From Amphiura filiformis (taxonomy: Eukaryota > Echinodermata > Ophiuroidea > Amphilepidida > Amphiuridae): a stretch of 64,000 bases of DNA. The stretch covers positions 775,501 through 839,500 of the forward strand of contig NW_027305497.1 in assembly GCF_039555335.1 (NCBI RefSeq), given 5' to 3'. Made by a program: the position numbers and the translations under genes. The notes under the pieces were generated by a model. That model was not told where the DNA came from. It saw nothing but the letters and a program-made list of their open reading frames with translations, and made no database searches. Below are positions 7,784 through 57,000 of this stretch, in pieces. The stretch's first letter is position 1; every line of letters begins with the position of its first letter.

Positions 7784-9864
7784 TTGATAATGATGATGAT
7801 GCCGATGATGACGATGATGATGATGATGTTGATAATGATGATGATGATGATGATGATGATGACGATGATGACGATGATGATGTTGATAATGATGATGATG
7901 ATGATGATGTACTAATGCAAATTTTGGTGTTAAGGCGACGAAAAAGGAAACCCCTTTTCTACGGGCCCGACCGACTCAAGAATTGGGAAACAATTTTTTC
8001 CCTGTGCAAATGAATGCCGGCCAAAATTTCGAAAATATCAGGAACATTTTTTTCTGTATTTCCCCAAATTGTAAACTATTTACAATTGTAAACTATTTAC
8101 AAGTTTTGGTGACTTTTTGGGTCATTTGCAAGAATAAATTTTGCAGAGGGTAATTTCTGATCAAGCAGGTCTGACCGGCTAGAGCAGTTAGGGTACTTTT
8201 ACCTATTGTCTAATACTCTGCAGGAAGAAGGAGATTATGAAACAAACAAAAGTTGATAAAGACGAAAATAAAATATATTGCCATCCTAATCGCTGTAGAA
8301 GTGGCGTAATAATCGGATTATCTACCATAGCAATAGACGAATACAATTTTGAATATATCGCCCAACACTACAAGCAGGTTGCACTCATCACCTGTGTTTG
8401 AAATCATAGATTGGATACAATACCGCTCTTTTCAAAGATACTAATCTTACAGGTGCGAGTGATCAGCATTTCTTTGACATCTGTGGTTCAATGGATATGT
8501 ACTGCGTGAACGTTGTAGTGCAGGGCGATATAGTCAACAATTGTATTAATCTATTGCAATGGCAGCCTTACGTCACTTCTACAGCGAATATATTATGTAT
8601 TCCTTAAACACTTACAGAAGCAACTACTTACATGTTGATATATTCATCGGTGACTTAAAGGTGGAACAAATATCAGAACATATTGCCTACCAATTTTTTC
8701 AGCTTATATGTAAGTAATAAAATGTGATGTGATCAAACAATGTCGGATGTCGGAAATATTTATTTTCAGATAGCCAGACCAAGACAATAATTTCTTTTGT
8801 GCATGTTGTTTTGAAAACTCTTTAACTTTGTATTTCTTTGGAACTAAATGTTTAATTTCAATGGAGTTTTCTGCAAAACGTAGCTTTGCAAATGTGTTCT
8901 ACAACCATCTAAAATCTAAAAATGGAATATGCCCGACTTATTTAGACTTATTCGCTTGATCACACCACAAATGATTGCAACATTACAATCTGGAACACAA
9001 ATCCTGTCATACACCCCATGGTTAATTTGTGAACAGTGCTTACTACTGAGTCACAAAGCAGGAATTGTCGTAATTTCGGAATTTTGATAGTTCCAGCTTA
9101 TAACGCACCCTAGTCAAAAGGTAGTAGTTGTCACAATTCCGGAATTGTGACAGTTCCTGGCTTGTGACGCATCCTGTCGATGTCAACAAATACGAATTAG
9201 CTGGAATTTTTGACAGACTGCATCAAAAAGAGAATATCGTTACAATTCTGGAATTTTTTCAACTCCTAATTTTTGACGGTCAGAATATTAATTATTATTT
9301 AATAAATGTTTTAAATAATGTAAAATAATCAGCCTGCTTCTTTTTTATTTATTTCACAAACCACACAGAGGTCATTTCGTACCTGTTTCGCAGTGTGAAA
9401 TGACACGAATAGTCACCATTCCAAGATTTGACAGTACCCACTGTCGCAATGCCGGAATTGCGACAATATCTACTGTCAAATAGTATGAGCTATCACAATT
9501 CCGGTAATTCCGGAAAGGCGACAATTCTGAAATTGTGGCTGCGTCAAAAACTGTACTGTCAAAAAAGTAAAATAAATAATGTAATTCTAAAAACGTTGGA
9601 ACTCGACAATGAATTCCATTGTAAAAGTATGTTGTTTTTCATTTTTTTTCCAATCTATTTTAAACGGGCCGTCAGCCTAGTAGTTTCATCAGCATATTCC
9701 GATTGATAAAAAATTAAATGTTTCCAATTAAATATCAATTAATAATATGCTATTTATTCTATCTAGGTGACCTTGGGGGAGCTTTGGGGTTGTTCTTTGG
9801 CGCCAGTCTTCTGTCGTTCATCGAAACAGCAGATTTTTGGTTTCATAAAGGATGCAAGAAATAG
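877..9864 (+). CDS. DEG/ENaC-family sodium channel gene (5' part and one or more exons missing, frame break)
   Basis: Six plus-strand exons with conserved GT-AG ends spell the extracellular domain and second membrane helix of a degenerin/ENaC/ASIC-type channel, an amiloride-sensitive Na+ channel subunit of the plasma membrane. Diagnostic pieces in order are GLTLILNAEEHEV and LSSPYG (exon 877-1083), NCGTKP and CGCRNFYMPG (1607-1729), CECPPACHEVIYTP (5922-6093) and GALGLFFGASLLSFIE with the GAS selectivity motif (9767-9864). The N-terminus and TM1 lie before 877 and were not found; position 1 may be inside the gene. The cysteine-rich piece that normally follows the MPG motif is missing between 1729 and 5922. 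Exon 7018-7538 contains a frame break, so this copy may be a pseudogene or contain a sequencing error. Introns are full of MITEs. Confidence 0.8.
1607..1729 (+). CDS. DEG/ENaC exon: cysteine-rich CGCR segment
   Basis: The acceptor CTCGCAAAAG and donor G|GTAAGT frame a phase 1-1 exon translating to NCGTKPLKYF, then KCYLECETDYLVSQCGCRNF and YMPG. The spacing C..C......CGCR and the MPG ending are the classic cysteine-rich region of DEG/ENaC channels. It joins in frame to the previous exon (PYG-NCG). Confidence 0.88.
2219..2327. repeat. (TTA)n microsatellite
   Basis: An almost pure TTA/ATT array with a few single-base variants abuts the left end of the element at 2328. A second TTA array abuts its right end, so the element probably inserted into TTA-rich DNA. 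Confidence 0.9.
2328..3835. mobile_element. Non-autonomous DNA element with ~25-bp TIRs in a TTA array
   Basis: The left end GGCCGTGTGTTCTGAACTCG pairs with the right end, whose reverse complement reads GGTCGTGTGTCTTGAGCTCG, followed by CCACC on both. Inside, a ~180-bp block (2328-2510, ending ATTATACAGGGTGACC) is repeated directly at 2789-2983, and AGCTAATTTAGATGTTTGG occurs twice (about 2515 and 2682). No transposase is visible. It lies in an intron of the channel gene. Confidence 0.6.
3836..3882. repeat. (TTA)n microsatellite, right flank of the 2328-3835 element
   Basis: The array consists of TATTACTATTATTATT-type units and is the partner of the TTA array at 2219-2327. Confidence 0.85.
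3883..4949. other. Intronic stretch without recognised feature
   Basis: This part of the channel gene intron holds no long ORF, RNA gene or repeat recognised here. The expected missing channel exon (after MPG) was looked for and not found. Confidence 0.4.
4950..5202. mobile_element. MITE, TGTGAYG family, full copy
   Basis: It starts TGTGGTGTGATCAAGTAAAA and ends CTAATCACATCACA, an inverted pair. The interior shares GAAATATTTCCT, TTGGCTATATCTCAAAATCA and TTTGCAGAAAACCCC with the copies at 8723 and 60438. It is non-coding. Confidence 0.65.
5306..5870. mobile_element. MITE with AATGAGCCGTAAATTC inverted ends (copy 1)
   Basis: The left end TGTGGCCGTACACGACGAAT plus GAGCCGTAAATTC is mirrored at 5830-5870 by GAAATTTACGGCTCATTCGT and GTACAGTCACA. 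The interior (CATTTGACTTCAAACGATAT, ATCAAACAGTCATAATTGGC) is shared with the copy at 13167-13756. Its end lies only about 50 bp upstream of the next channel exon. Confidence 0.7.
5922..6093 (+). CDS. DEG/ENaC exon: CECPPAC segment
   Basis: The acceptor is TATTCTTTTAG and the donor AG|GTTAGT (phase 1 to 2). The translation is FFGSSKYEYCECPPACHEVI then YTPTVSQSAFPS and YLAVQSDYEI. C.CPPAC....Y....S....PS is the second cysteine-rich motif of DEG/ENaC channels. The piece normally found between YMPG and this exon (with its own cysteines) is missing upstream. Confidence 0.85.
6627..6946. mobile_element. MITE with GGGTCATTCAAAAAGTTCTA inverted ends (copy 1)
   Basis: The left end AAGGGTCATTCAAAAAGTTC and the sequence ACATCTCTGTTATCTTACGT are mirrored at the right end by CTTACGTG.. 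reversed, GGAGGTAGAACTTTTTGATT and GACCCTCG. The same ends bound the 994-bp element at 27127-28120. The end sequence is typical of Tc1/mariner-type elements; no transposase is visible. Confidence 0.65.
7018..7538 (+). CDS. DEG/ENaC exon with unusual ~170-residue block and a frame break
   Basis: The acceptor ACAATTTTAG and donor AG|GTAAGT fit the neighbouring phases (2 in, 2 out), but the 521-bp length does not: one base is missing or two are extra. The first frame runs RSLPSRNIFGF to PLDDAKISQ and stops at about 7415. The other frame takes over near 7385 as IAEDIYGDFGVEKAFSDTF and reaches METVDYSAMATDYM at the donor. Both parts are rich in acidic and aromatic residues and read as coding. Typical family members have only about 30-40 residues between the cysteine motif and the pre-TM2 strand, so this block is an expansion of unknown role, with no domain recognised. 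The break could be a real mutation, an assembly indel or an unrecognised mini-intron. Confidence 0.65.
7557..7914. repeat. (GAT)n microsatellite with GTT/GAC interruptions
   Basis: About 355 bp of GATGATGAT broken by regular TTGATAATGAT and GACGATGTT variants begins 18 bp after the donor of the preceding channel exon. The patterned interruptions suggest slippage of a longer compound unit. Confidence 0.9.
7931..8180. repeat. Diverged copy of the TAAGGCGACG MITE
   Basis: It starts TAAGGCGACGAAAAAGGAAA and shares CCCTGTGCAAATGAATGCCG, AAAATAT and TGTATTTCCCCA with 237-508. The right end is degraded. Confidence 0.5.
8274..8596. mobile_element. Palindromic MITE (intact relative of the Merlin target site)
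   Basis: Left AATCGCTGTAGAAGTGGCGT and right ACGTCACTTCTACAGCGAAT form the ends; CATAGCAATAGACGAATACA and TGTATTAATCTATTGCAATG pair inside. The centre reads CATCACCTGTGTTTGAAATC. The same family, interrupted by the Merlin element, is found at 50642-50760 plus 56432-56650. Confidence 0.6.
8618..8709 (+). CDS. DEG/ENaC exon: strand before TM2
   Basis: The acceptor is TTAAACACTTACAG and the donor T|GTAAGT (phase 2 to 1). The translation is SNYLHVDIFIGDLKVEQISE then HIAYQFFQLI. Family members have a similar LxVxIxxxxLxxExxxxxxAYxxxQLL strand directly before TM2. The phases fit both neighbours exactly. Confidence 0.82.
8723..8969. mobile_element. MITE, TGTGAYG family, full copy
   Basis: The ends TGTGATGTGATCAAACAATG and TTCGCTTGATCACACCACA are inverted. 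It sits 14 bp after a channel-gene donor site. It shares the interior CAATTTCAATGGAGTTTTCTGC-type sequence with the other copies. Confidence 0.65.
9060..9560. repeat. Array of palindromic CACAATTCCGGAATTGTGACAG motifs
   Basis: Short blocks such as TCACAATTCCGGAATTGTGA recur, degenerately, near 9065, 9130, 9240, 9370, 9420, 9445, 9490 and 9520, spaced 30-100 bp apart. Each block is its own reverse complement. No coding potential is seen. Confidence 0.5.
9767..9864 (+). CDS. DEG/ENaC terminal exon: TM2 with GAS motif and stop
   Basis: After the acceptor TTATTCTATCTAG the exon reads DLGGALGLFFGASLLSFIET then ADFWFHKGCKK and TAG. This is the second membrane helix; GAS is the ion-selectivity signature and the FIE that follows is the usual end of the helix. 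The cytoplasmic tail is very short (about 11 residues). The last part of this exon is duplicated at 10054-10125. Confidence 0.9.
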
Positions 9865-17330: not shown

Positions 17331-17865
17331 ACCTATGAATATCCACTCGTATACTGAATAAGTGGTTAACAATTGAAACACGCTTGAATTTGGAATTTAT
17401 CTAGGGACGTGGCTAGATTAGCAGAAAAAATGAGAAAGAAATAACATTGCAGTTACAGACCACATGAATTTTGCAAATGGCTAAGGAATAATATTAACAA
17501 GAACAACAGCAATACACTCCCAGAATGCTGGTTAAAATTGTATTGGTTCAAATATTTTACCCAACATTAATTTCAGACATTTAACTAGAAGTTACAATGT
17601 AACCAAACATTGGTAAAATTATTTTAACCAACCGTTGAGTTAAAAGGTAAATATGACCAAATTGTAAAAACTTACATAAAATATGTCTTTTTAAATGAAT
17701 GTGTGCCTTTGGTTACCAATCAAACAACACAATAATTTGTTCAAATACGTTTACCCAATGTATCTTAGATTTTGATTAAATGTTGGTTAAAAACAAAATA
17801 AACGAACCAACCGATATTTAACCAGTGTTCTGAGAGTATAGTAACAACACAATTATATACCTTAC
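17331..17865. other. Region downstream of the last recognised kinase exon
   Basis: It is AT-rich, with repeated TTAACCA/TGGTTAA words. The C-terminal exon(s) of the kinase gene should lie here or further left on the minus strand, but no exon could be recognised. Confidence 0.35.
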
Positions 17866-30700: not shown

Positions 30701-33700
30701 TTTACTTTGGGATTTGATCTCTTCTTCTTCTTATTTTCCATGTGGTGTTGTAGTTGCCATTTTCATTTGCTACTTGCAGGTCTTCCATCTGCCTGTGTAT
30801 AGAGGCAAGTTCATCAGCCCTATATGACTCGTTGAGCTGGGTGTTGAGCTTTCTCCACACTTCTCTGGCATGATGAGTTCTAACAAGTAGATATGTCTTC
30901 TTGGCTGCATCTCTTTCTGATCTTAACTTGAGGGTGTTGTCTGTCACCCAGCTTGGCATTCCACAAGGGCTACATTTTCCAACAACCTCTTCCGCGACTT
31001 CTTCGACTGCTTTCTCAAACATTTCATACCTCTCACTGGTCGTTGTCGTCAGACTGGAGGACCTGGAATCTGTTTGAAAGTTCAATCTGGAAATGGTTCT
31101 TAGTAGGAGCATGAAGCAGCTTCTTCCAGTTGTACTTAGGCCTCTTACAAGGTTTACCTTTGGTGGTTCGGAGACTGGTGTGCAGTCGTATGCTGAGTAT
31201 TCGATGGTCTGAATCCAGCTCTACAGAGTTATAGGCTCTGCAATTGCGCAGGGAATTAACCCACTTGCTGTTGACAAGGATGTGGTCCAGTTGGTGTTTT
31301 GAGCCCGTTGGGTGCATCCATGTCCAGAGACGACTTTTGGGTTGGGGAAATCTTGATTGTGAAGGACGGAGCTTGAATTCCTGGCATAAATTCACTAGTC
31401 TCTCTCCATTGTCATTTGTTGTGTCGTAAAAACAATGAGGACCAACCACAGCTGGATGAGATACATGGCTATCTTGGCCAATTCTGGCATTGAAATCACC
31501 AATAACGAGGTGGATGTTGTGCCTCTTCACCTTTTCAAGATGGTCTTCTAGTGGATTATAGAAACTGTCCTTTTCTCCTGAGGTTGCTGATTCAGTTGGG
31601 GCGTAAATAATTGTAACCGTAAGCTGGGGGTTCCCATTAAATGAAGCTGTTAGTATTCTTTGATTGATGGTCTGCACGCTCTGAAGACACCTATGGATGT
31701 GCCTTGACATTAGAAGTCCAACACCACCCTGCCTCTGGTCTGTGGCAGAACTGTAAATAAGTACCCAGTTCTTGTCGTCTGACCATAACTCGTCAGTGGG
31801 GGATGATGTAATAAGACAGTGTTCTTGCACACCGACAATGTCGACGCCTGCATCGCTACAACCCGTAAATAGTTTATGGGTTTTTCCTTGTTGGTGTAGT
31901 GTACGCACATTTTGAGGAGGATCATGGAAGGCTTCAAGGAGTACCAACTTCCCTTAACAGTCACTTTTGTGGACTTCAAAAAAGCCTTCGACTCCATCAA
32001 CAGGTCCGTCATGTTTTCAGTGCTGCGGCATTATGGAATACCAAAGGTTGTGGTCAATGCCATCCAGGTGCTCTACAAAGACTCCAATAGTGCCGTTATG
32101 GTAGATGGCAGTATCTCGGAGCCTTTCCAAGTAACAACTGGAGTGCTTCAGGGTGATGTGTTGGCACCATTCCTGTTTATTATCCTGGTAGACCACCTTC
32201 TGATGAAATCAACTTCTGGAATTGACGCTGGAATTGTTACCTATCCACGTCGGTCAAGCAGGTATCCTGCCAAGATGCTGAATGACCTGGATTTTGCTGA
32301 CGATATTGCCCTGCTGGAATCTTCCATAGACCGGGCCCAGTCACAGCTTACTAGGACTGCAACTGCAGCAGCAGATCTAGGCTTTGTAATCTGCGCACCT
32401 AAGACAGAATATATGACTGCAAACTGTAACGCCCAACCAGCACTTGAAGTCTATGGTAGTACCATCAACCATGTCACAGACTTCAGGTATTTGGGTTCCA
32501 AGATGGGCTCTAGTGTTGGAGACCTAAAAAGAAGAAAAGCACTAGCCTGGGCAGCTTTCTGGAAACTGGAACGCCTTTGGAGAAGCCCGTCCCTGCCAAT
32601 CGAAACAAAAATCAAGCTGTTTCAGACAACGTGTGTTACTGTCTTTCTGTACGGGTGCGAGTCATGGGTAATTACCAAGGACATGGAAAACAAGATCAAT
32701 GCATTTGCAACATCTTGCTACAGAGTCATGTTAAACATCAAGCGTGTGGATCGGATTCCAAACGAAACCATCTACAACCTGACCAACACCACTCCACTGG
32801 TTGCCAGAGTCAAGATTCATCAACTCAAATTTCTCGGCCATATACTGCGTCTTGAAGATGGCGAGCCTGTGAAAGAATATGCGCTTTATATTCCACCACA
32901 TGGGAAGAGGAAACCGGGACGGCCGCGCACACTGTACTTACAGTATGTCCAGCACCTCCTGGGAGATACTGAAGGGATGCTGCAGCCAAACAAAATTGTT
33001 TCGCTTGCCCAAGATCGCATTAGTTGGAGAAAGCTTGTAGTCGCCTGCTCCGCAGCCGACTGATGATGATGATGATGATGACGCACATTGTAGGTGGATA
33101 CTACAAGTGGTTTGAAGGTAGGTAGACGAGACATATCGGGACCAACAGTCTGTGATGGTGTGCCAGGTTCCCGCTGGCCTGTCATAGAGTCAGAAGAAGA
33201 CGTCTGCCCAGCTACCTTCGATCTAGTATTTGGATATTTGTTTGTAGTTTTCGTAATCATTTGTTGGCCAGACTTATTTTAGTCCGTGTCTGGCAACTGA
33301 ACGGGTGATCAGCCCTGAACAGCATATTTCCGGAGGCAACAGCAGCCGAAATCCACATATTTATAGTGGCACGCCCCTGGCCCGGAACACGTTGGCCAGT
33401 GAAGTTATTTATATGGTGACATGTTCAACACCATCCTGTTGACCGTTGGAATGACATAATCATTCTCATCCGCTCTTTAGCCGTTGAGAGTTGTACTCTT
33501 CATCCGCCATTGGAATAGGTGGTTCCAAACTATTTGAACCATAGCTGGATTAGATGAAGGATACTGAGTGGACACTGAATGGATAAAGGCTATAGTAAAG
33601 TGAGACATGGCAGAACACCTTGGAACTAAGACTAAACCTACCAGAATACAACACATGGTCTAACCGCACTGTTCTCCAGCAGTTTAAGGAACAAGTCCAG

Positions 33701-36700: not shown

Positions 36701-39700
36701 GGGGCCAAAATGGGAGAAGGCACATTTATAAGTTTATGGTCCATATGTGTGCCATATTTGAGCCGTAGTGGATTTGAGATATTCTTGTGAAGAAGGAGAA
36801 GGAGAAGGAGAAGGAGAAGGAGAAGCAGAAGAAGAAGAAGAAGAAGAAGAAGAAGAAGAAGAAGAAAGAAGAAGAAGAAGAAGAAGAAGAAGAAGAAGAA
36901 GAAGAAGAAGAAGAAGAAGAAGAAGAAGAAGAAGAAGAAGAAGAAGAAGAAGAAGAAGAAGAAGAAGAAGAAGAAGAAGAAGAAGAAGAAGAAGAAGAAG
37001 AAGAAGAAGAAGAAGAAGAAGAAGAAGAAGAAGAAGAAGAAGAAGAAGAAGAAGAAGAAGAAGAAGAAGAAGAAGAAGAAGAAGAAGAAGAAGAAGAAGA
37101 AGAAGAAGAAGAAGAAGAAGAAGAAGAAGAAGAAGAAGAAGAAGAAGAAGAAGAAGAAGAAGAAGAAGAAGAAGAAGAAGAAGAAGAAGAAGAAGAAGAA
37201 GAAGAAGAAGAATATATTAACAACACAATCAGGATGTCTATGGTCCGTTACACGGTCATATATCGATAAGAATACGACTAAACAACATATGCAAAATATC
37301 CATGCCATTGTCAAAGAAAAAAAGATAAAACCGGTACTATTTGTACCGTACCATACCCGGATTACGTAAGTCTTGTTACTGGTGAGATTTTCCAAATCCA
37401 GTTTATAGTAATTTGGAGCCACTATCACCGTTTCATATGTACCTCCCTTGATACCATACTCTATGGTATAACTTAAAATCTGTACATCGGTACAAACACC
37501 AGATAATTTTGGTGGGTCCCATTCAATTGTAATGTTATTCAAATCGGCATTTAAAGCTCGTAGGTTGGATGGTTCAGGAAGCCCTGCATAAATAAAAGTA
37601 TAATTTTTATGAAATTAAGTCGGAAGGAAGTTCAGTATCTTCCCAGTGTAAAACATAAGTATTTCAAGGTATGAATGTTTGCATTCGTACTAATTCATAT
37701 TTGCAATTATGAAAACCGTTAATGACTTTCAAAGTTTCACATTTCTCAATTTACAGGTTTATTCATTTATTTATTTATATATTATTCATTAGTAATTTCA
37801 ATAATAATAAAAAAATAATTAGACCAGCATGCAAGGGTTGACATGGTCCAGCAAAAGCGACAAATTAATCACTGACATCTGAGAAATAAGTGCACTCCAC
37901 CCTTGCAAACTGGTCATAAAACATAAGCGAAAGTACTGCACTATAATAAATATACATACAAATTACAAAGATATTAACATATTAACATATTATTTTTTTT
38001 TTAAACATCACTATATTAAAAGCAAGAAGCCCCTAAATATATACAAGAGAGCCAATATATATCAATATATTGCACCTAGTCAAGCAGGATAAAATAACAC
38101 CTCAACAAGATAATACCCCCACCCCCCACCTCCCCACCCCATCTCCACAAAACATAGTTGCCATTTAGGGTTACATTTTTGAATGGACTGAAAGTAATCC
38201 CCCGAATGGAATTTGAAGCAGTTTAAACTATTGCACAAATAAATATCCGTAATGTGGCGGGGAAGGTCAGATCATTTTTTAGGGAAGCGTTGGATGAAGT
38301 TATAAAGAAAGCATCATTTTTGGCTCTGGTACATAAGTTGTTTTAAGTTTAGAAATCAGGATGTTATGTGATTTACAGTCAAAAGCTTTGCTGTAGTCTA
38401 GAGAAATGAGGAAATTAGGAAATGATTTGAGCATATCTTAAGCAGATTAATTGAGTTGGGTAATGTAGACTGATCAATATGCCTTTTGTTTGACGCAAAT
38501 CGGACATACGGTTTCCACAATACATCAAATTATATTTTCTTTGTATCCAACTGCTTTTATCAATAATCAATACAGTTAATGAGCTAAAAGGTCATTAATA
38601 TATAATTTTTGCCAATATTTTGCTAAAAATCAATTCATATGTTAATGGTACTTTTATTTTGCATACTTTTGCCCTGAAACTTGGCCAAAGTGTTCCTAAT
38701 ATGTTTTAATGTATTATATAATGAAGCCGCCCCCTAATTAGCATATTTGCCTAAGTAATTAGCATTTATGGTTTTAAACATAAATGCTTAAACTATGAAA
38801 CCACTGAAATGTGTAGAATCAATTCCCAAAGCATGGTTTCAAGGTTATATAGCGTCCTTAATTCAATTCAATTCAAATTTTATTTATACACGGAAAGGCC
38901 CAGATCAGCCCTTGAGCTGGTCTTCCCTGGGGCCGTGTTTTACAACAAGTATAAACAACGATATAATATCAAAAAATAAGAACATATACAATGTGAAATT
39001 AAAAACATATACATACAAGCAGTAGGAAAAATAAGTAATGCAAAATAACTAGGTAAAATTTAAATCATAATCACTGAATAACAGTCTTTTGAAGGAAGCA
39101 AGACTTACAGAGGACTGTGCTGAAGATGACAAATTATTCCACATAGTAGCACCTCTGTAAGAAAGACTACGCTTCTTATAGTTATTTGAAGGAAAAGGAA
39201 TATTAACATTTCTTGGATTGCGCCTGAGGTCGTATTTATATTCCTTTTCCGTAAATAACTTACATATATTTTCAGGAAGTATATTGTTTGTCACTTTATA
39301 CATAAATTCAGCAAGATGGATATTTCTAATCTTATCAAGAGATAACCATTTAAGTTGTTCCAGAACTTCAGCTCCTGGGGTATCCCAAGGAACATTACAA
39401 ATATATCTAGCAGCTCTTGCTTGTAATCTTTGAAGCTTAATAGAATCATTTTTGCTACAATTGCCCCAAATTACATCACAATAGTTGAAGTGTGGTGCAA
39501 CAATAGAGTTATAGATAATTTTAAGGGTACTTTTAGAGACAAAATATGTAGCCCTTCTGATCATTGAGATGTTTCTTGCAGATTTTTTACAAACATTTTC
39601 CATATGATCATGCCAATTTAAATTACAATCAATTATTACGCCTAGATGAGTGCTGGAGTAAACCTGACTTATAGCATTACCATTTATATGTACATTTAAA

Positions 39701-42700
39701 CTATTGTTATTAATTTTACTTAGTCGCTGCGGTGAACCCATCATCATAAATTTAGTTTTATTCTCATTCAGACTCAGTTTATTATTGTCTAGCCATAATT
39801 TGATACTCGACAGATCATTATTTAAGCTATTTACAATATCAATGTCATTTTTGGCAGAGCAGTAAATTATAGTGTCATCAGCATACATACTGATTTGAGA
39901 AAAGTGAAGACAATTAGGCAAGTCATTAATAAATAGAATGAAAAGGAGTGGTCCTAGGATTGAACCCTGAGGAACACCATAATTTATAGAATCAAAGTTA
40001 GAAAGTGTACCATTTACAAAAGTAGCTTGAGTACGATTAGAGAGATAACTTTTGAACCATCCAATACTGTATTTGCTAACTCCAAAATGTTTCAGTTTTT
40101 GAATCAGAATATTGTGATTTACAGTGTCAAATGCCTTTCTTAAGTCAATTAAAGCAATGCCAATTATATTACCATCATTAATAGCACCATACCAGTCTTC
40201 AGTTATGGAAGCAAGTGAAGTTGAGGTAGAATGTAGAGGTCGGAAACCAGACTGATTGGGAGAAATAAGACTATGAGAATTTAAATAAGTGTAAAACTGA
40301 TCAAAAATGGCTCTTTCAATAATTTTTGATACAACAGACAAAATGGAAATGGGCCTATAATTATTTGGATCACAATGCTGACCACTTTTAAAAATAGGTG
40401 TGACTTTGGCTTTTTTCCAATTTGTAGGAAAAGTACATGACATAATAGAATAATTAATAATGTGAGTTAATATTGGTGCAATAACATGTGCTCCTGCTTT
40501 CAATAATTTGGCAGAAATCTCATCAAGACCGGTTGCCTTATTGGTAGGAATATTACATAATTGTTTGAGTACATAGTCAACTGTAACTGGGATAATATCA
40601 AAAGACATTACATTATTTACATCATCATCACAACCATTATTATATTTACAAGTATCATTTCTACCAAGTTCAGCAGCAAGATTAGAACCAATAGATGTGA
40701 AAAATTTATTGAGTTCATTAGAGATTTCTTTGTTATTGCTAACCTCACCATCTTTGGTTTTAATGCAATTGATTTTTGAATATGATTTCTTAGATGGCAC
40801 GATGTGGCGCAATTGCTGCCATGTTTTCTTAGTGTTACCTTTACAAGAAGCAAGTGAATCGGTAAGATATGTGCGCTTACTTTTCCTTATTGCACTGGTA
40901 ACCGTATTTTTAATAGCACGATAATGAGCCCAGTCCTCAGATTTATTTGATTTAATAGCATTACATTTTGCATTATCGCGATCACGCATCAAATTAGTTA
41001 CAGCAGGAGTTAACCATGGGCTTGTATTTGGTTTAACTCTTCTCTTTTTTAGAGGTGCATGATTATTTGCAACATTTAAAAATATTGATTCAAATTTATC
41101 CAAAGCCAAATCAACATTTGCTGCTTGATACACAGAAGCCCATGACACATTCTTAAGTTCGTCTACAAAAGAATAATGATCAAATTGTTTATAAGACCTG
41201 GATTTAACATATTTGTGACCATTATTGAGATGCTGTTCTTTTCCTTTTATAAAATATATAAGTGAGTGGTCACTAATACCATTATGAATAACACCTGAAT
41301 GAGTTACTTTACTAGAATTTGATGTATGAATATGATCAATAAGAGTTTTAGAGTATTGAGTGATACGAGTAGGTTCCTTAATAAGCTGATTAAGATTATA
41401 AAATGAACTTAAATCCATTAACTTCTTAGTATAACAATGAGGATGATCAGAGAGTAGGTCACAATTGAGATCACCTATCAGGAAATAGTCCTTATTTTCT
41501 GAATCAACTTTGGAGAGAACAGTGTCAATGTGATTAAAGAGATCAATAGATGAATTAGGTACTCTATACCAATAAATCATAATATAAGGTTTACAATGTT
41601 GAGGCATCAATTCAATACATATAATTTCAAGATCATTTGGCATAAGATCATGGCGGATATTATAATTTATATTATCCTTAATGTATACAGCTACTCCGCC
41701 GCCACCCCTATTTCGATCAGAACGATGAATTGAAAAATTATCTATAGAAACTTCACTATCAGAAAAAGTGTCATCAAGAAGAGTTTCACAAAGACCAATG
41801 ATATCAATATTATTAATATGAGCAACATAACGAATATCATCAATATATTTGGGGAGACTGGCAATGTTTAGATGTATTATTTTAGTACCTTTTACATTAG
41901 GAATAGATTTTACATTATGTTTACAATCAGAAGTGTTATCATTTAAAACATATGTATTACTCGGTGACATAAATGCATCATTAGAAGATGTGCTACAAGG
42001 AAACACTGTACATGTATTTGTATTATCATTTGAAGAGCAAACTTCAACATCTGAAATATCAGAATAATCATGTTTTGAAACATTTCTATAAGAAAATGTA
42101 TTCTTCTTTGAAACATTTGCATCAATATCATTTTCAATTTGTATATTATTATCAACATTATTAGAAACATCAGAAATCATATCATTATCAACAGCAAAAG
42201 ACTCATTATGATGAGATATAGCATGAGTGTTACCAAAATCAGACCAATTTGTTGTCAAGGTATCAGAATAATTTACATGGTTAATATTGACAGAGTTATC
42301 ATCATAGTCTTGATCTGAAAGAGTTACATTAACACTATTATTTTCATTTAACCCCTTTTCCACGATGAGAGATCTTGGAGAAAAGGGGATTTATCCAGTC
42401 CGCGAAGATAGTCAATATAATTTTTAGCAAGAGCAAGAAGTCCACTTGGTTTCAAGTGAATTCCATCAGCGAAAGCTACATGGTGAAGATTAATGTTATC
42501 ATTGGCAATGTATGTCCAGCCCTTCGTCTTACATAGGTGGGCGATTGCACGGTTGATGGTTACAACATATGATTGTCTCATCATCTTCATCTGAGCAGTC
42601 AGTCCAGAGAAGGCAAGATGAACATCATCTCTTCTCATTATGAGTTCACCAAGTTGTTGCAGTATGTTCATGCAGGATGCTGGTTGTTGGAGATGGATAT

Positions 42701-45700
42701 TGTTCGTCCCACAATGAACGATGACAATGTTCGGCTGAATTTCAGTCAAAATCGAAGGTGCAAATTTCAGCCACATTTCAGGAGTACTGCCAGGTAGACT
42801 GTAATTAACAACTCGGTAGCGACTTGACAGTCTCCTACCAATAAGTCCTTTGGGGATGGAATCGCCCATAATTAGCACGACTCGCTTCTTTCTTGGATCT
42901 ATAGGAGGTTTCTGTGGTGCAGCCGGTGATGAAGGTTTAGGTACCTGGGTTGATGGTTTTGACAATGCTGCTTCCAAATAAGTTTTGTCAGTTGTTCTAT
43001 TTTTCTGTGCTGTAGTTTTCTTGACGATTTTATGGCTAGGGGTTGTGTAGCTTTGTGAATGGGCAGCCTTACTGGTCCAGCTGGAGGTATAACTTCATTA
43101 CAGTCCTGTACCTCAAGAGCATAAAATCTATTTGCAGTTGAGATGCTGTTGGATATACAGTGAGAAGTGGGTGCAGTTTTCTTTGGATGTACGAAAGGTT
43201 GTGATGATCTGGGAACATTTTCAAGAGATTTTGATTTGGTTTCCAAAACCGCGTTTCTGTCGGAGAGTTCCTTATAGGAGGAGGATAGTTGTACATATGC
43301 TGACCTAAGTTCCCTGAATTCAGTAAGTTGCTTTTTCAAGTCATTATTTGAGTCTGTTAAGCGCCTGATTTCATTCCGCAAGTCAGTTTCAGTGTCAATA
43401 TGTTGCTTCCGTAGTTTAGCATCAGTGTCTCCAGAAGATGTAGTTTGAATATGTTTTGTTACATATTTAACTGATGCTTGGACTTCAGTACAGTTAGTTG
43501 ACACTTGAGTTTGTGCAGAGCTTGAGACATGTAGAGCATTTTCTTCATGTGGTGTTGGGCAAGGAGATGGTGGACAGTCATCATAGTTGAGAGAGAAGTT
43601 AGGTATTGGCGCAGAAAAGTTATTTACTGGCATAGGAGTTGATGTCACAGGATCAACAGTAGATAGGTCATTCTTATCAGACAATTTCTCAGCAATTTCT
43701 GGAAGAACAGTATCTACCCAAGTAGAATGTCCAGTACCCTGTACTGATACTGTGTTTGTTGATGAGTAGCAGGTGATTGTGACTTGTTCTAGAGTGTCAG
43801 GCATTAATGTTCTGTAGATAAGTCCACATTTTCTGTTATTTTGCGGAGAACCATAATGTGTACTCAATTCATGATTCAGGCGCTCAAAGATATCTGGATG
43901 TACTGCTATGGTTGTTGACTGTGTTTTTGGTTCTATTTTCCACATTGAGTTATCATATATTTCCTTGTTTGTAAAACCACTAAAAGTACCATTGAATGTG
44001 GCATTGAAGGAGTGCCATAGATGGGTGACTCCCTTTGTTATCCTCGTTAAGTCCATTGTGAAGAGGCAGGATGTTCAGCAATTGACACAGCAAAAAATCA
44101 ATACAGTCATGTACAGGTGTGTGTATACCAATAGATGAAGTTTGTATTATAACAGGAAAATTCAGATATAAAGTCACAAATTTCTCCAAAATAATGATGA
44201 AAACCATAAAACAAAGTTTATCTGCAGATTCTTGGTATCAAGATGAACATTTCCATATATAAATCAAGTGGTAGTTGTAAGTAAATCCAGTATAATCATA
44301 TGATAGAGTGAGAGCTGATGGAGTGTGCTGCTCACTGTTGCCCCAAATTACTGGTCTACCTTAGGTAGACTACAGGGTGTCCCAGAAAAAGTACCGGGCA
44401 AATGAATGTGGACGTAAGTCGAGAAATAGACATCAGAATCCAAAAATCTAAACAGCAGCGAATAGCCAATCTTATGCTGCATCTTATACGCAAATTTTGA
44501 CAGACTGTGAAGAAGAAATGAGCGGTTACATAACGCATGCGTCAATTTACTTCATTTCATTCCAAGCTTGAAAGAAAGACCATTCAAGACAATGCGCACT
44601 AGTGTTTAACACTGTCAATGGGCTTCATATTTTGTTCGGTGAAATCCTTTTCGTTCTTTTTAAACAATCTGTTCTTGCAGAACATTTTATTAGGTTTTGT
44701 TAAAATTTGAAAACCTGCACGATATAGAAAACGACAGCTTGCATATAATATGATGTTCGGTATTGTAAATATCTTTTTTCGTTAATGTTGCATGAATTTA
44801 AGAATTATTGCATAAAGAATTCTAGGTGGCTTAAAACAATTCCCACACACATTACATGTACTACTTTTGGAATTTCCAAGAATTTGTAATGCAAAGTTTA
44901 AATCTTTTAAAACTGCACTACTAATGTTGCATGGTATCAAACATCACACATAAAGCTGTGAGCACTTGATCGTTGTCATTCTTGGCTCAAATTAGTTAAA
45001 AAGTTAAAATATAACATATTTGCACAACCTTAAGAATTAAAGTTGGAAAGCTTCCAATTGCAGAAATCAATTTTTTCCCGGACAAACTGTTTTTCATCTT
45101 CAGTGAAAGCATGAATAACATAACACCGTCGGATTATAAAATAGATAATGTGGACTAAATTTAATGAGATACACAAACTTTAGGAAGCGGTGAACGAGCA
45201 TGAAAAACGCGCCTGTTGATCAAACTTGGAATGAACTGCATTGATGCGCGCAATATGTAATCGTTAATTTCTTCGCAACCAGTCAACCGAATCATATAAT
45301 ATTTGCGTATGTGATGCACAATAAAATTGGCTATGCGCTACATTTATTTATTTTTTGATTTTGATGTGTATTCCTCGACTTACGGTCAATTTTATTCACT
45401 CGGTATTTTTTCTGGGACACCCTGTATCCACCACACAGAAATGTAACGTCAACTCACATCCTTACCTTTGATACCTGCTGAGATAGGATCTGAGTATGCT
45501 CCTATACCTTTATTAGTGTCGGCAGCAACCACGAAATAATACTCGGTACAAAGATGGATGGTCTCAAATGTAATTTCCGTGCCTTGTGTAAAACCTATGA
45601 TAAAATTTGATCATTAAAATGTAAAAATTCTAATTACATTAAGAATAGGTAAAAAATGTATACATTAAGTTCCATATTATTTAGACCAAAGCGTTGCTAT

Positions 45701-48107: not shown

Positions 48108-50969
48108 TTTTTCGATTGATAATTTGATGATCGAGTGAGCAGATTTATCGATTGCTACTTTAGTTGTGGGACTTCTATTTGATTTTGAATGACATCGTAC
48201 ATTAGTATTGATTTTTTCCGTTAAACTTTATCAAGAATTAATATCACAGGTTTTAGTGCAGATAGGAAGTTGGCTTAGTGATACTATCCGTTGATTCAGA
48301 ACCGGAAGGTGCCGGGTTCGATTCCCACCTATGCCTATTTTTTAAAGACTTGGAAAATTACTGCAGTAAGTTTATTTGGCGCGCGATCTCAGTTATTCAT
48401 TTTCTGATGGCTGTGCCTCTTTACAGACACCCTCCCTCTGGAATCCAAACCACGGTTCGCTCATTACACCTCCCTTAACTCTGCAGCTTTTCAGAAGTGT
48501 GGTTATATTTGTAGAGATAGGACAACAGTATGTGTGACATGTGACTTGATATATATTATGGTGTTTTGTCATAATGTTGTTCGTTTTAAGGTAATAATGC
48601 ACAATTTTAATGGTTTTGATTTAAGGATGGTCTTACCTTTTGTGCCTCATAACTGCTAAATTGTTAGTCTAAAGATTTAAAAGTATCAGAATGGCAATGA
48701 CTATGATGACTTGACGAATTCATATGTGAGGTCAAATTTGGGCAAAAATGTCAGTTTTGGAGAAAATTTAAAAAAAAAATGTTTTCGGGCAACATAACAA
48801 AAAAATTCCTTTGCTACAATAATTTGACAAGTTTAAATGCTTAAATCTCAAAATGCCAAAATTGGACTTTAAAGACTTTGGAGCACTTCTCCAGCTTAGG
48901 TCTTCTAGGATGGGTCTTCACATAAAGGGAACGTCTACTTTGCAGAACTACTAATAGTTCATCCTGAAGAATTCAGGTTCAGAAATTCTAATGAAAGATT
49001 GACGGTTTTTATACTATAACCGATGAAAAACCAGTTAAAACCTTCCTTCCTTACTATAAACGTGCTGTACCTCAATTTTGAGTATTGTCGCACGGGCTTT
49101 ACGTGCATAATTTCCCTATGCACCATCCTGTAACCTAGGATTTATTGCAGATATCAGAACCAGGGATGGCCCCTTCACTTTTCGAGTAGCACTGACACTT
49201 AACGTGCACAGGGTTTGACTCTTCCTGTACACAGGACCAACAGCTTTGCGAACCGAACCACGACGAGACATCGCACATGTATATTATAATTATAGACTTT
49301 CTTCTAAACCCTATACACTGCTTATCACGTACAGATAATGGTCACGTAAAGTCACGTAAAGCTGTTGGTCCCGAGTACAGGAAGAGTCCAACCCTATCAA
49401 ACCCACGTTACGTGTCAGAGCTATTCGAAAAGAGAAGTGGGACCATCCTCGGTTCTGCAATCAATCCTAGGTTCCAAGATCGTACATAGGCAAACTGTAC
49501 ACGTAAAGCCCGTGCGACAATACTCAAAATTGAGGTACAACACGTATATATAGGAAGGAAGGAAGTGCTAAGCAGAGCATGGGGTGCAGAAGAAACTCTA
49601 TAATTATATCCTGTACAGTAACTGAACACAATTGCAGGATATCCGATCTTATAGGAACATCTTGGGAGAGGAAGAGAATTCTCACCTAGGGCAAGCTTAA
49701 TAAAGACTCGAACCATCGCCAATCGTATTCTCCCGGCCGACAGCGCAACGCCTCCTTCAACATGTATATATGATGTGAATCAGCCTACCTGATTTCAATG
49801 TCCTCGTTATTACTTCAACTGGATCACTGGGCATAGTTGCTTGTGACTGTACAGTAAAACTGTATTCTGTATCTGGTGAAAGACCTTGATAGTTGTAAGT
49901 TCGATAATTTGCCGGAGTTGTTGTTCGGATGGATACGTCTGATCTGTCAAGTGCACTAAGTGTGACTATGTAAGTCGTAATATCAGCTCCTCGTTGACCA
50001 CATGGTGGACCATCCCACTCAAACACTAGAGTTGTTGTGTTTATGAAGGTGGTGCTGACATTTCGGGGAGAGCCAGGTTTAGCTTTATCAAATAAATAAC
50101 ACGATATTATCATTGCAGTCGACAAAAAAATTGAATATCAAGGAATAATGTCAGCATCAATTTTTTAAAGCGGTAATGGTCAAGATCTTAATTTTTAGCG
50201 TTCATTTGTAACGCAAATACAAAACTTTAGCATATAAGCTCTATCATGTGAAAGAAAAATAAACAAAATAATAGAAAGTTTTACGAAATGTGTTCAAGAG
50301 CACAAACATCAACGTCTAGATGATTATAGAGGATTATCTATTTAAAACCATTATACCATGAAAGCGGTGAGCAGAACAAAAATACGTCAATTTAAGAACA
50401 ATAGTTCCCACATTTTATTGACAGCAAAATTTTGTATTATCTGTTAAAAGACAAATTATTGGAAATCTAATTCTGTTTGGGTAAAAAAACAACGCATATT
50501 GTTGAAAATTAGTGATTGATTTAGGTTAAAAATTGTTTTGTTCCAAACGTCAAGCTTTTGTGTGTGGTCACGACGTAAAAACAATTTGCGAAATCGCGTT
50601 TAGTGAAAACTTCAACGGTAAGAGGATTTTAATCCTCTTACCGTTGAACCCGTATACACCGTCGAAGTGATGTAATAATCGAATTAACTACTATAGCAAT
50701 AGATGAATACAATTTTTGAATAGAAAAGCAGGTTGCCTGATCACCTGTGTACATGTGTTGGGCATTGTCCTCTTAAAAGCCCGTATAAAATAAAGACCCC
50801 CTAGCTTACTGAAAATATACGCGTATTGTACGGCGCACTCAAAGCAAAGGTCGCGCTACGACGCGCCCTGCACAGCACACCGCGCAGCGTGAATAAAAAT
50901 GATTTAATAAATGATTTAATAAATAATTAAATAAATAAATAATTAAATAAATAAATAATTAAATAAATA

Positions 50970-51018
<49 letters not shown>

Positions 51019-54000
51019 AAGGCCTAAATAAATAAATAAATAAATAAATAAAAGGCCTAAATAAATAATAGGCCTAAATAAATAAATAAATTTAATAAAT
51101 AATTAAAAAATAATAAAGTAAAATAGCTAAATAAATGATTTAATTTTTTTAAATTCATTTAATATAATAATAAATTGCTTAATAAATTAATTAATAATTT
51201 AAAACAAGATTTGATAAATATTTTGATAAATACATCTAATAAATAAATAAGTAATGAAATAAATATATAAATAATCTTTAATAAATTCATAAATAAATAA
51301 ATAAATATTTTAATAAATAAATAAACGATTTAATAAATATTTTAATCAATACATTTCATAAATTTTATTTATTTAATTAATATTTTAAATAAATAAAAAA
51401 ATAAACTAAGTAAATATGTTTTTAAATAATTTAATAAATAAATATATGAACATGGCATTTATTCCGTTGACATATGAAACAATAATGACCATTTTCAATA
51501 ACTAGCGCTTTCCAATTTAAACGGAATAAATAGCATGATTAGGCCTACCCATGATTGTCCTATGAACATCATAGCATTTATTCCGTAGATATATCAGGAA
51601 ATAATAATGAGCAAAATTGTTTATAAAAAAAATATATATAGGCCTATATATAATTCTTGCAGGCTTAGCCCTTTCCAATTCAAACGGAATAAATAGCATG
51701 ATGATATAAAAATTATAATTTGTCCTATAAGTATAGCATTTATTCCGTAGAATTAATAAGGACATAATTATCATAATTAGGCCTACTTCAGCTCAGACCT
51801 GTCCAATTCAAACGGAATAAATAGCATGATTATATAAAAATTATAATTTGTCCTATAAGTATAGCATTTATTCCGTAGAATTAATAAGGACATAATTATC
51901 ATAATTAGGCCTACTTCTAAGCTCAGACCTTTCCAATTCAAACGGAATAAATAGCATGATTATATAAAAATTATAATTTGTCCTATAAGTATAGCATTTA
52001 TTCCGTAGAATTAATAAGGACATAATTATCATAATTAGGCCTACTTCTAATGACTAGCGCTTTCCAATTCAAACGGAATAAATAGCATGATTATATAAAA
52101 ATTATAATTTGTCCTATAAGTATAGCATTTATTCCGTAGAATTAATAAGGACATAATTATCATAATTAGGCCTACTTCTAAGCTCAGACCTTTCAATTTC
52201 AAACGGAATAAATAGCACGATTACACATTTTTTATCCTATGAACATAGCATTTATTCCGTATTCCATAGGACCGTAATAATTAATTTTGAAATAACATTT
52301 GATTTCTTGTAGGCTTGTCCACTTCCAATTTAAATACGTCCATCAGAATAAATAAGCCCCCCTGGAACAAATAGGCCCGTCTGAAACAAATAGATCCGTA
52401 ACCACTTCTTGCTTAACCTTCTTCCCCCCAAAACTCTCCTAGCCCCTCTTTTGCTGGAAAATATATCCCCCAAAAGAAATCCCCTTTTCTCGTCCGGGAC
52501 CCGGTATTAATATAAACTTGTTTGCTATTGTATTATTTTTATTATGGTCAGACGCTATATATTAGTCCCTTAATAAGCCTGTATTGGTACTTTTTACGTG
52601 TTGAAACTCCATAGGACGGGCCTATTAAGGGACTAATATAAAGCTTGACGATATCCAACACACTTATATTAGTCCCTTAATAAGCCCGTATTGGTGATTT
52701 TAACGTGTTGAAGCTCCATAGGACGGGCCTATTAATGGACTAATATAAAGCTTGACGATATCCAACACACTTATATTAGTCCCTTAATAAGCCCGTATTG
52801 GTGATTTTTACGTGTTGAAGCTCCATAGGACGGGCCTATTAAGGGACTAATATAAGCTTGACGATATCCAACACACTTATATTAGTCCCTTAATAAGCCC
52901 GTATTGGTGATTTTTACGTGTTGAAGCTCCATAGGACGGGCCTATTAAGGACTAATATATAACGTCCGACCAAAATAAAAATAGCAAACAAGCTTAAATT
53001 AACACCCGCCCCGGAGGGGTGAGAAAAGGGGATTTCTTTTGGGGGATTTTATGACCAGCAAAAAAAGAGGGGCTAGGAGAGTTTTGGGGGAAGAAGGTTA
53101 AGAAAGAAGTGGTTACGGATCTATTTGTTTTAGACGGACCTATTTGTTCCAGGGGGGCTTGTTTGTTCTGACTGGAAAATTACACATTTTTGTGTAGCGA
53201 TTTCAGGGGCCGCTTTGCATTGATTTGAATCATTTAATTCTGTTGCCTTGGATTATAATTTTGTCATGGATGCCCAAGAGTCAAGAAATCGCAGAATTTA
53301 CAGTCTTTGGGATGACATACAAGATATAGTTGGAGCAGCAAGGCATTGGCCTAGAATTATAAGACGATTATTTTGGAGCAGGAATTTAACGCATTTTCAG
53401 AGAATTTTAGTTTGCTCTTTTTGTTATGTGAATGGTCTAAATCCAGTTGTTTTCCGTGAATGGGCTGATCTGTTACATTTATGCCGTGATCGTGCAGCAA
53501 TAAATCACATTTCATCCCTTTTTCGACTTTTTGAATCAGGGAGAAATTACCGCCTGTATGCCTACAATATAACAATGGGTCGATATGAATACCTGGATGG
53601 TACAGTAAGACTGTACACCCACAGAAGCGATAGACGCTAACCATGTTAAACGGTAAGGAAATGCCATTGAATATACATGTACCATTTATTTAGCTAAAGC
53701 AGCCACTGTGCAAAAACACGCCATGTAGAGAAGCATGTACAAAACAACATGCAGGGCCGGCGTTGCATCGCCCCTTCGTGCTGATTGGTTGTAAGTTCAA
53801 TCAGGCACAATTCCACACAGCGCAGTAGGTCGTTCAAGTCTGACAGTGCATGATCGAGTACACGTCCATGCATACTGACTTGGGCGCTTCGTGGATTTAC
53901 TGCATGATCAACTTAAAACCAATCAACTTGAAGAGGCTGTGCATAATGAGAAATATTGTAAACGTTATGCGCAATGGATATGAATATTAAATGATGAAGG

Positions 54001-57000
54001 GTGTCAAGAAAAGAAATAGGATTGAAAAAAAAACGAAGAAAAGGAATTACAGAAGTGCAGGTAAGGGGGCTTTTAAGTTATTTTTACTCCACATATGAAA
54101 TGTATTTATATTATGATTGGTTGTTTATATTAATATGATTGATCTTACCATCTTATTTATCACTTTAATTTGGTCATTATTTTGGCCACCCCTCCCTAAT
54201 TTTGTTAAAGACCATAATTAATTCAATAGACCATTTATGGAATTTGTATAATTAATTAGCATTTCTAAAAAGGCAAGCCGTTTCTTTCGCTTTTCAAGCA
54301 TCATGGACGCCGCTACAACAAGAGAAAGGGGTGGTTTTTTTCGTGATTATCAGGTTAACCCGGATGAAATTTCATTCAAGAGTTTCGAGAATGCTTGGAC
54401 TTTCCATGCCTTTTTCCTCCGGGGACCATTCATATGGGTACCATGGCTGATAGCGCAGGGAATTTTAGCGAATAATGACCAGATGAAATGTAAAAAATGT
54501 GGTGGACCATGTTCTTTACAGAAGAGAGAGAAAAAGATAGACGGATTTACATGGCGCTGTAAGGAAAACAAAAATCACGAGACAAGCGTGAGACATGGAT
54601 CATTCTTTAGCGAATCTAAGCACGCAGTACCTGATAAACTGTTGTTTGTTAAAAACTATCTTGATAAACTATCACTGAAAAGGTGTTCGCAGTTCTCCAA
54701 TGTGGCATACAAGAGCACTGCAGTAGAGTGGGGCAAAGATATCCGCAATGTTTTTATGCAATACGTCAGAGAACAGGTAATCTCCAATAACATGAAACTA
54801 TCAGGCATTGTCGAAATTGACGAAAGTCACTTCGGGAAGAAGCACAAATACCACAAAGGTAAAGTGACGTCAAAGATTGATGTGTGGATTGTTGGATTGG
54901 TAGAGAGAGGCTCGGGAAAGATCATCCTCTACCCGGTGGAGTCCCGTGACAAGGCTACCATGAATAAGATCGTTACACGCCATGTAGAACAAGGCTCTAC
55001 CATATATACAGATGGCTGGTCCGGGTATAGTGGTTTGAATGGAATAGGTTATAGACATTTTAGTGTTATCCATAAGGATGGTTACACCAAGAGGTACCGA
55101 AACGCAGCGACAGGGGAAGTAGTGGAAGAGGAAGAAGAAGTGATAATAGTACATACAAACACAATCGAGGGGACTTGGCAAACTGCGAAGGAACATTTCA
55201 AAGTACGTCGAGGGGTAGAAATAAGTACATTTGAAGGGCATGTAGCTGAGTTAATCTGGCGAAACCACCACAGAGGAGACCCCGGAGATATATATGAAAG
55301 CTTCCAGTTTCTCCTGAATCACACCTACAATCATCAGGGTCCACCACCTGACTTGGATGACCAGGGCACCCTTTTCGACACATGGAAAGGTGTTGAGGAT
55401 TCTGACAAAATTCACGCTGAATTACCAACCATATCCAGGATGCAGATGGCAGCAGAGCATGATCACCCGTACTCATCATCAGCCCCAGAAGACGATGCTC
55501 AACCAGGCTCTGAACCAGGATCTTCACCATCACCACCAGGTCCATCACCAGGTCCTTCACCACCACCAGGTCCATCACCAGGTCCTTCACCACCACCAGG
55601 TCCTTCACCACCACCAGGTCCATCACCACCACCAGCACCAGGTCCATCACCACCACCACCACAAGGTCCACCACCACCACCACCACCTTCGTCAGACTGC
55701 ATCCCGTCAACTTCGGGCACTTCTGCAACTCGCGGCTACCGGCATCTCTACTGCCCTGCAGGATGGGTCGTTCACGAGTCATCAGATGAATTTCAAGAGG
55801 ACAGGAAAAAACGGCCAAAAAAATTCCGACGCAGGCAACAAAAGCAAGGAAAGAAGAAGGTATGCAAGAATTTGCATGAAATATATCCATTGTCGTCGGA
55901 CAGTGACTTTGAATAATTTTGACATTTTTGTTGTTACAGTATGCTGTTGAACTTTGAACTGATTTTCGTGATTGTTGGACTACAAATGAAGAAATGATCT
56001 GTTGCTGTTGAACTTTTTGAACTTTTAAATTACCGTGATTGTTAAAGTTGGACTTTACAAATGAAAGTGAAGAAATCATCTGTTGCTGTTGAACTTTGTT
56101 GAACTTTTTATACCGTGATTGTTGGACTTTACAAATGAAGAATGAACACTGAGTGAAGAAGGGGACAAAATTAAGGTAAGTGAATATAATTTATTATACC
56201 ATTTGAAAATTCAATTTCTTTAATTAAGTTGTAAACATGTTAATTATTGCACAGATTAATATTTTTATTATGTTTGTACCCATCATCAAATAATGAAAAT
56301 GTATTGAAATATGCATACGGCGCCCGATATTTAATGTCATCACGTCCAGCACCCTCTGCATGAACTCGCGTACTTTTTTTCAGTAAGCTAGGGAGTGCCG
56401 CCATTTTACGGGCCTATTAAGGGACAATGCCATGTGTTGTGTATGTCTGCAATCATAGATTGAATACGCGCTCTTTTCAGGTGCGAGTGATCAGCATTTC
56501 TTTGATATCTAATGTATGGCTCAATGCATAGGTCGGGGCCATAGGTACCGCGTAAACGTTATAAAGCAAAGCGATCTATTCAAAAAATGTATTCATCTAT
56601 TGCTATGGTAGTTAATCCTGTTACATCATCACTACGACGGGGAATATTTGCAATTTGCAATGTAAACTGGAACTAGAAGGCTATATATTTGTACACAAAT
56701 ACGGCTATACCCGCATGTTATCGGTGTACCCAAACTTACAGTCCTTATTTGCTGAGGACTTAAAATAAAGAAATTGTAAAAAGTCGCCCAATCGGGCAGA
56801 AAATGTGTAAAAAGTGAAAGTCAAAGTCACAAGCTTTAATTGAATGTAGGTTGCACTGTCGTAGCACTTAAAATAAAGAAATTGTAAAAAGTCCCCTCCC
56901 AGGGGAGTTGTCACTCTTACTCTCCATAGGTTGCTGTTGTCAGTATCTCTTACTCACAGTGAGGCTATGCAATATGATTAGGGGGAAACTATTCAAGAGG

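What the first reader, a model, noticed from the sequence alone, without database searches (positions are those of the whole stretch)
50761..56431. Oversized, intact two-ORF Merlin-type transposon with exact 8-bp target duplication
Both ends (GGCATTGTCC...), the duplication ATGTGTTG on either side, an uninterrupted ISXO2-type transposase with D173, D237 and E289, and insertion into a recognisable MITE are all directly visible. Known Merlin elements are usually one-gene and short; this one is 5.7 kb, carries a second ORF, structured repeats and a transposase with a proline-rich, basic C-terminal extension. It may define a new Merlin lineage and could be active.
Basis: partly seen in the sequence, partly recalled or inferred. 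Interest (0 to 1): 0.88.

Follow-up and report, generated by a model that had tools for sequence, protein, structure and literature searches.

The report
Merlin transposon with conserved partner gene
This is a whole cut-and-paste jumping gene of the Merlin type in a eukaryotic, probably animal, genome, and beside its transposase it carries a second, strongly conserved small gene whose predicted shape resembles a DNA-handling part of primases and photolyases.

Summary
Window 50761-56431 (5671 bp) has imperfect 63/65-bp inverted ends starting GG, an exact 8-bp duplication and an intact 537-aa transposase with the IS1595/ISXO2 DDE domain (E 9.7e-19). It sits in a MITE-like repeat, of which an uninterrupted relative lies at 8295-8575. 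It is a Merlin.

Seven internal copies of a 19-bp TIR core stand in a palindromic array; none in 60 shuffles.

Untested: whether other Merlin copies carry ORF2, copy number and activity; no genome was held.

The parts
50753..50760 (.). left target-site duplication ATGTGTTG
56432..56439 (.). right target-site duplication ATGTGTTG
50761..50823 (+). left terminal inverted repeat (63 bp, begins GGCATTGTCC)
   Evidence: alignment to right end; score 59 vs shuffle maximum 23
56367..56431 (-). right terminal inverted repeat (65 bp); source of the 19-bp core used in the scans
50904..51445 (.). A+T-rich low-complexity array (AATA/TTAATAAATAAA), about 9% G+C over 50880-51450
51663..52223 (.). 130-bp tandem repeat, 4.3 copies, 95% matches; related partial units extend over about 51451-52261
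52339..53176 (.). large imperfect palindrome; one strand folds as one long hairpin with interior loops (DNA z-score -33.7 against 20 shuffles)
   Evidence: 690 of 886 alignment columns identical to its own reverse complement
52558..52984 (.). 107-bp tandem array inside the palindrome; carries the 19-bp TIR core GTCCCTTAATAGGCCCGTA in alternating orientation: 7 copies with at most 2 mismatches plus one with 4
53266..53640 (+). ORF2, 124 aa, intact member of an unnamed conserved family; predicted primase-large-subunit-CTD / photolyase-like helical fold
54303..55916 (+). transposase, 537 aa: N-terminal CxxC...C region (zinc-ribbon-like, inferred), DDE_Tnp_IS1595 domain (residues 165-320), proline-rich repeat, basic tail ending SSDSDFE
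55531..55687 (+). tandem repeats that encode the proline-rich stretch
55987..56139 (.). 81-bp repeat, 2 copies, downstream of the transposase ORF
50653..50760 (.). left part of the host MITE-like repeat into which the element inserted
56440..56646 (.). right part of the host MITE-like repeat
8295..8575 (+). relative of that host repeat without the insertion (paralogous empty site)

Best explanation
A complete, two-gene Merlin cut-and-paste transposon. Shown: its transposase is of the IS1595/Merlin type with an intact DDE triad, and the element lies between exact 8-bp duplications inside a MITE-like repeat. Inferred: the transposase binds a core inside the terminal repeats, near GTCCCTTAATARGCCCGTA, cuts at GG...CC and inserts at 8-bp staggered cuts. 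Inferred with moderate confidence: ORF2 is an accessory DNA-binding protein of the element with a primase-large-subunit-CTD / photolyase-like helical fold. It would bind single-stranded or junction DNA, such as ends, gaps or extruded palindromes, during or after transposition. Inferred with low confidence: the palindromic array of TIR cores upstream of ORF2 is an internal binding site for the transposase, which would control ORF2 expression or titrate the transposase.
Confidence: 0.6

Rival explanations
1. ORF2 is a shared module that travels among several kinds of eukaryotic mobile element, and this Merlin merely picked it up; it is not a regular Merlin gene.
For: ORF2 relatives are closer to the query (50-72%) than the transposase relatives listed (29-50%). 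The two hit lists share no contig that could hold both genes: one longest-contig length, 1203, occurs in both, but is too short for a 327-aa and a 123-aa gene. GC3 differs. KolX is a precedent: an accessory protein of Kolobok with partial relatives in a few piggyBac families (PMC9587614, passages read).
Against: ORF2 lies on the same strand between intact ends and is itself intact. In the stretch tested (52200-53265 against 53641-54302) the longest inverted repeat flanking it is 13 bp without matching 8-bp flanks; 18 nine-base pairs against a shuffle mean of 4.8 and maximum of 22. The transposase search was cut at 7990 candidates, so the lists cannot be compared fairly.
Confidence: 0.3
2. ORF2 is a captured host gene, carried as a passenger without a role in transposition.
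For: Transposons can capture host genes (general knowledge); no test here favours it.
Against: Relatives are short stand-alone proteins (82-217 aa; candidates of other lengths were outside that search); none of 54 longer candidates matched. Only 1 of 35 has a source name, a 'hypothetical protein' of Batillaria attramentaria. Invariant residues point to one maintained function.
Confidence: 0.07
3. ORF2 is an ordinary small helical DNA-binding protein, and the PriL-CTD/photolyase likeness is only a common helical arrangement.
Against: Two models agree, and the listed rows for the second are almost only the two families already known to share one fold (49 of 50); some key residues share spacing.
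Confidence: 0.35
4. The internal TIR-core array is a relic of nested fold-back insertions or replication slippage, without function.
For: Internal tandem repeats, and a region duplicated in opposite orientation, occur in other Merlin families (PMC8101967 section 11); the two main arrays here are 95-96% homogeneous, as expected from recent expansion.
Against: The repeated unit contains part of the terminal repeat, in alternating orientation, upstream of ORF2.
Confidence: 0.5

Closest known systems
Merlin superfamily (Feschotte 2004, recalled, and as described in Lopes 2021, PMC8101967)
   Same: 8-bp TSD, TIR beginning GG, DDE_Tnp_IS1595 transposase, internal tandem repeats in some families
   Different: 5.7 kb, conserved second gene, transposase of 537 aa with a long C-terminal tail, TIR core repeated in an internal palindrome
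Bacterial IS1595/ISXO2 family
   Same: profiles align over 291 columns (hhalign E 8.2e-43)
   Different: the bacterial relatives used (17 of 80 loci) are proteins of 271-313 aa without the C-terminal tail
Primase large subunit C-terminal domain (PriL-CTD/p58C)
   Different: no Fe-S cysteines, no K363 counterpart, stand-alone 124-aa protein, no Pfam match to the primase family
Photolyase/cryptochrome C-terminal helical domain
   Same: 34 of 50 listed fold rows for the second ORF2 model
   Different: ORF2 is far shorter and lacks the rest of the enzyme; profile similarity not significant
Uncharacterised small proteins labelled CRESS-DNA virus (A0A345MQ97, A0A345MY62)
   Same: best Foldseek matches to both ORF2 models, E 4.0e-4 to 9.3e-4, TM 0.46-0.67
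   Different: 17-25% identity; function unknown; comparison is of predicted models only
KolX accessory protein of Kolobok transposons (PMC9587614, passages read)
   Same: small second protein of a DDE transposon family
   Different: KolX has 7 conserved cysteines and a P2X7 cytoplasmic-ballast fold; ORF2 has no invariant cysteine

Membership tests
Merlin superfamily | 8- or 9-bp target-site duplication | tested here: met
   ATGTGTTG exact on both sides
Merlin superfamily | TIRs of 24-462 bp with terminal GG | tested here: met
   63/65-bp imperfect TIRs starting GGCATTGTCC
Merlin superfamily | DDE_Tnp_IS1595 (PF12762) domain | tested here: met
   68.3 bits against cut-off 27, residues 165-320
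Merlin superfamily | intact DDE triad | tested here: met
   D173 nearly invariant, D237 and E289 invariant in A2
Merlin superfamily | transposase groups apart from bacterial IS1595 | tested here: met
   18 rows with the window split from 14 bacterial-side rows at 100/100; organism is known for few of the 18, and no Repbase reference could be included
Merlin superfamily | absence of the Zn_Tnp_IS1595 domain (stated for known Merlin and IS1016) | tested here: inconclusive
   no PF12760 hit; CxxC...C is present and lines up with the bacterial zinc ribbon, but in a forced global alignment with only moderate confidence there
Merlin superfamily | multiple mobile copies in the genome | not testable with these tools
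   no genome held; one copy in the 64-kb window
NCBIfam IS1595 family transposase (NF033547) | score above curated cut-off 75 | tested here: not met
   71.6 bits
PriL-CTD / photolyase helical fold (ORF2) | structural similarity to solved members | tested here: inconclusive
PriL-CTD / photolyase helical fold (ORF2) | significant sequence or profile similarity | tested here: not met
   against photolyase-related proteins 7 of 150 permutations reach the score and the reversed profile is higher; no Pfam match to either family among 36 members; PriL itself could not be compared by profile
PriL-CTD / photolyase helical fold (ORF2) | conserved R355, F361, L367, W375 equivalents | tested here: met
   R46, F52, L58, W66 at one offset; L362, I365 and F374 do not match
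PriL-CTD / photolyase helical fold (ORF2) | conserved K363 and H401 equivalents | tested here: not met
   position 54 is Y/F/W/L in 36 of 36 rows and H401 falls on G92; a gapped match of H401 to invariant H81 is possible, not tested
PriL-CTD / photolyase helical fold (ORF2) | four Fe-S cysteines (primase) | tested here: not met
   no invariant or nearly invariant cysteine in A1
KolX (Kolobok accessory protein) | seven conserved cysteines | tested here: not met
   against PMC9587614 passages

The most novel reading that the evidence does not exclude
A lineage of animal Merlin transposons regularly carries a dedicated accessory protein with the PriL-CTD/photolyase fold, shared with orphan proteins of CRESS-DNA viruses. 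This protein binds single-stranded or junction DNA at transposition intermediates, so that a eukaryotic cut-and-paste transposon and rolling-circle ssDNA viruses use the same unrecognised DNA-handling module.
Probability: 0.3. Interest if true: 0.8.

Novelty: new variant of a known kind. Interest (0 to 1): 0.58.

Why it matters
In the papers I could search and read, no accessory protein of a Merlin element is described; the word 'accessory' does not occur in the main text of Lopes 2021, and the one extra ORF inside a Merlin element that I saw it mention overlaps the transposase backwards and is judged a chance ORF. A conserved second protein would change how Merlin transposition is studied, since a reconstituted system might need both proteins. 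If the fold holds, it links DNA transposons, CRESS-DNA viruses, primases and photolyases through one small DNA-binding domain. The intact element gives a concrete pair of genes and ends for testing.

Tried and rejected
Chance or non-coding ORF2: rejected, because 35 relatives with shared invariant residues exist, most with the same start and end. ORF2 as KolX: rejected on cysteines; P2X7 chains also do not appear among the fold or profile matches listed, which alone excludes nothing. ORF2 inside a separate nested element: no support in the stretch tested. Sequence relatives of ORF2 outside eukaryotes: none passed in viral contigs (0 of 35 stretches) or genome contigs (0 of 19), both searched through two short peptide patterns only, nor in phages by tblastn. 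Fusions of ORF2 with longer proteins: none of 54 candidates. Weak PDB hits of the single relative P0035 (clostripain-related, E 0.039) and of the transposase (best: a pollen allergen at E 0.0077, in the proline-rich stretch) look like chance or composition matches. Six IMG/VR contigs encode distant IS1595-type transposases (26-32%) but no ORF2 relative in open frames of 50 or more codons. The 25-bp right-end TIR has no exact match in viral contigs. Host identity: not determined; Rfam gave no hit in the window. Proof of photolyase likeness by profile comparison failed, and primase large-subunit sequences could not be fetched.

Literature: that no Merlin accessory protein is in print rests on the listings of searches (some cut to part of the papers found, e.g. 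25 of 98) and on open-licence PubMed Central papers only. Searches were for primase/photolyase, CRESS, KolX and IS1595 passenger genes. Of PMC8101967 I read the abstract, sections 3, 10 (part 1 of 2), 11, 14, 15 and passages; of PMC2852410 the abstract and section 4; of PMC9587614, PMC4434180, PMC4202319 and PMC13155389 passages only; other papers were seen as listings. Feschotte 2004 and Repbase were not seen.
Full report
What is there. The element runs from 50761 to 56431 (5671 bp). It is flanked by ATGTGTTG on both sides, and its ends pair over 63 and 65 bp with some mismatches and gaps. The TIR alignment scores 59 against at most 23 in 300 shuffles. The flanking DNA is a MITE-like repeat with 72-nt inverted arms. 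A relative of that repeat at 8295-8575 runs through the same place without the element. So insertion is supported by the duplication and by a paralogous empty site.

The transposase. ORF 54303-55916 codes for 537 aa. It matches Pfam DDE_Tnp_IS1595 with 68.3 bits against a cut-off of 27, and NCBIfam IS1595 with 71.6 bits, just under its cut-off of 75. A search of about 5.8 billion proteins gave 22 relatives among the 7990 candidates that were scored; that list is cut off by candidate number. Three carry an organism name: sea urchin, the clam Mercenaria and the mite Oppia. D173, D237 and E289 are conserved. A profile of 9 Merlin proteins aligns with 17 bacterial IS1595 proteins at E 8.2e-43. In that global alignment the CxxC...C of the N-terminus lies on the bacterial zinc ribbon, with moderate confidence only. 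Lopes 2021 states that known Merlin lacks that domain; here too no Pfam hit is found, but the cysteines are present. In a tree of 32 rows (first 400 residues of the window protein) it joins P0001 and P0011 (84/98, not a strongly marked fork), within 14 Merlin-side rows (96/78), apart from the bacterial-side rows at 100/100. The proline-rich stretch is coded by tandem repeats and is not seen in P0001 and P0011. An RGY..CPAG-type motif after it recurs in P0001, a basic CKNLHE.YPLSSDSDF end in P0011, and similar acidic ends in several others.

The second gene. ORF2 (53266-53640, 124 aa) has no significant Pfam or NCBIfam match. Its search gave 35 relatives out of 37 scored candidates, all with E of 1.5e-24 or better and BLASTP identity of 50-72%. 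Over the alignment of 36 rows, identity to ORF2 is 48-71% and 8 columns are invariant. Relatives are 82 to 217 aa long; that search only considers proteins of 0.55 to 1.75 times the query's length. A search for longer proteins (about 364-1157 aa) holding this domain found none among 54 candidates. No relative was found in viral contigs, prokaryote genomes or phages (the first two through two peptide patterns). One relative has a named source, the snail Batillaria attramentaria.

Viral likeness. In the library of predicted viral structures, the best matches to both models are uncharacterised proteins labelled Circoviridae sp. (A0A345MQ97) and Cressdnaviricota sp. (A0A345MY62), E 4.0e-4 to 9.3e-4 and TM 0.46-0.67. 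Several further high-ranking rows have no name. Among listed rows with probability 0.9 or more, the named ones are CRESS or other circular DNA viruses. An archaeal-virus primase large subunit appears lower, at E 0.4-0.7.

Internal repeats. An A+T-rich stretch, a 130-bp array and an 838-bp palindrome fill most of the 2.5 kb between the left end and ORF2. The palindrome folds as one hairpin with z -33.7 against 20 shuffles. Its 107-bp units carry the TIR core GTCCCTTAATAGGCCCGTA, as read at the right end, in alternating orientation: 7 sites with up to 2 mismatches and one with 4. No site with 2 or fewer mismatches occurs in 60 shuffles of the inner element (at most one with up to 4), and none with up to 4 in the rest of the window. 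The left end itself differs from this core by small gaps and changes. Internal tandem repeats, and a region duplicated in opposite orientation, have been reported in other Merlin families, so repeats as such are not new; the reuse of the TIR core is the notable part.

Mechanism. Merlin membership I put at about 0.97. That ORF2 is a regular accessory protein of this Merlin I put at about 0.6, and that it acts by binding single-stranded or junction DNA at about 0.45; the combined statement carries 0.6 as a whole because its firm half dominates. The role of the array as transposase binding site is a guess (about 0.4).

Limits. No genome is held for the window, so copy number, activity and the ORF2 pairing in other copies remain untested. 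The host is an unidentified eukaryote; the named nearest proteins are mostly from marine invertebrates, which is only a hint.

Noticed in passing
window 39049-44074: Non-LTR retrotransposon-like ORFs on the minus strand: an endonuclease/reverse-transcriptase-like open frame of 1113 codons and two further open frames beside it (named from reading the translation).
   Followed up: no
window 29319-33063: Reverse-transcriptase-like fragments on both strands, apparently two related pieces (from the translation).
   Followed up: no
window 17765-18811: Protein-kinase-like open frame on the minus strand, 348 codons (from its translation).
   Followed up: no
window 36730-37270: Very long trinucleotide-type repeat that reads as poly-Ser, poly-Leu, poly-Glu or poly-Arg in different frames; the minus-strand frame beside it looks like a fibronectin-III exon (from the translation).
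   Followed up: no
window 54489-54578: CxxC...C pattern in the Merlin transposase and relatives that may correspond to the bacterial IS1595 zinc ribbon, although Merlin is described as lacking that domain.
   Followed up: partly
L094-L099: Six IMG/VR viral contigs encode distant IS1595-type transposases, 26-32% identical to the query.
   Followed up: partly
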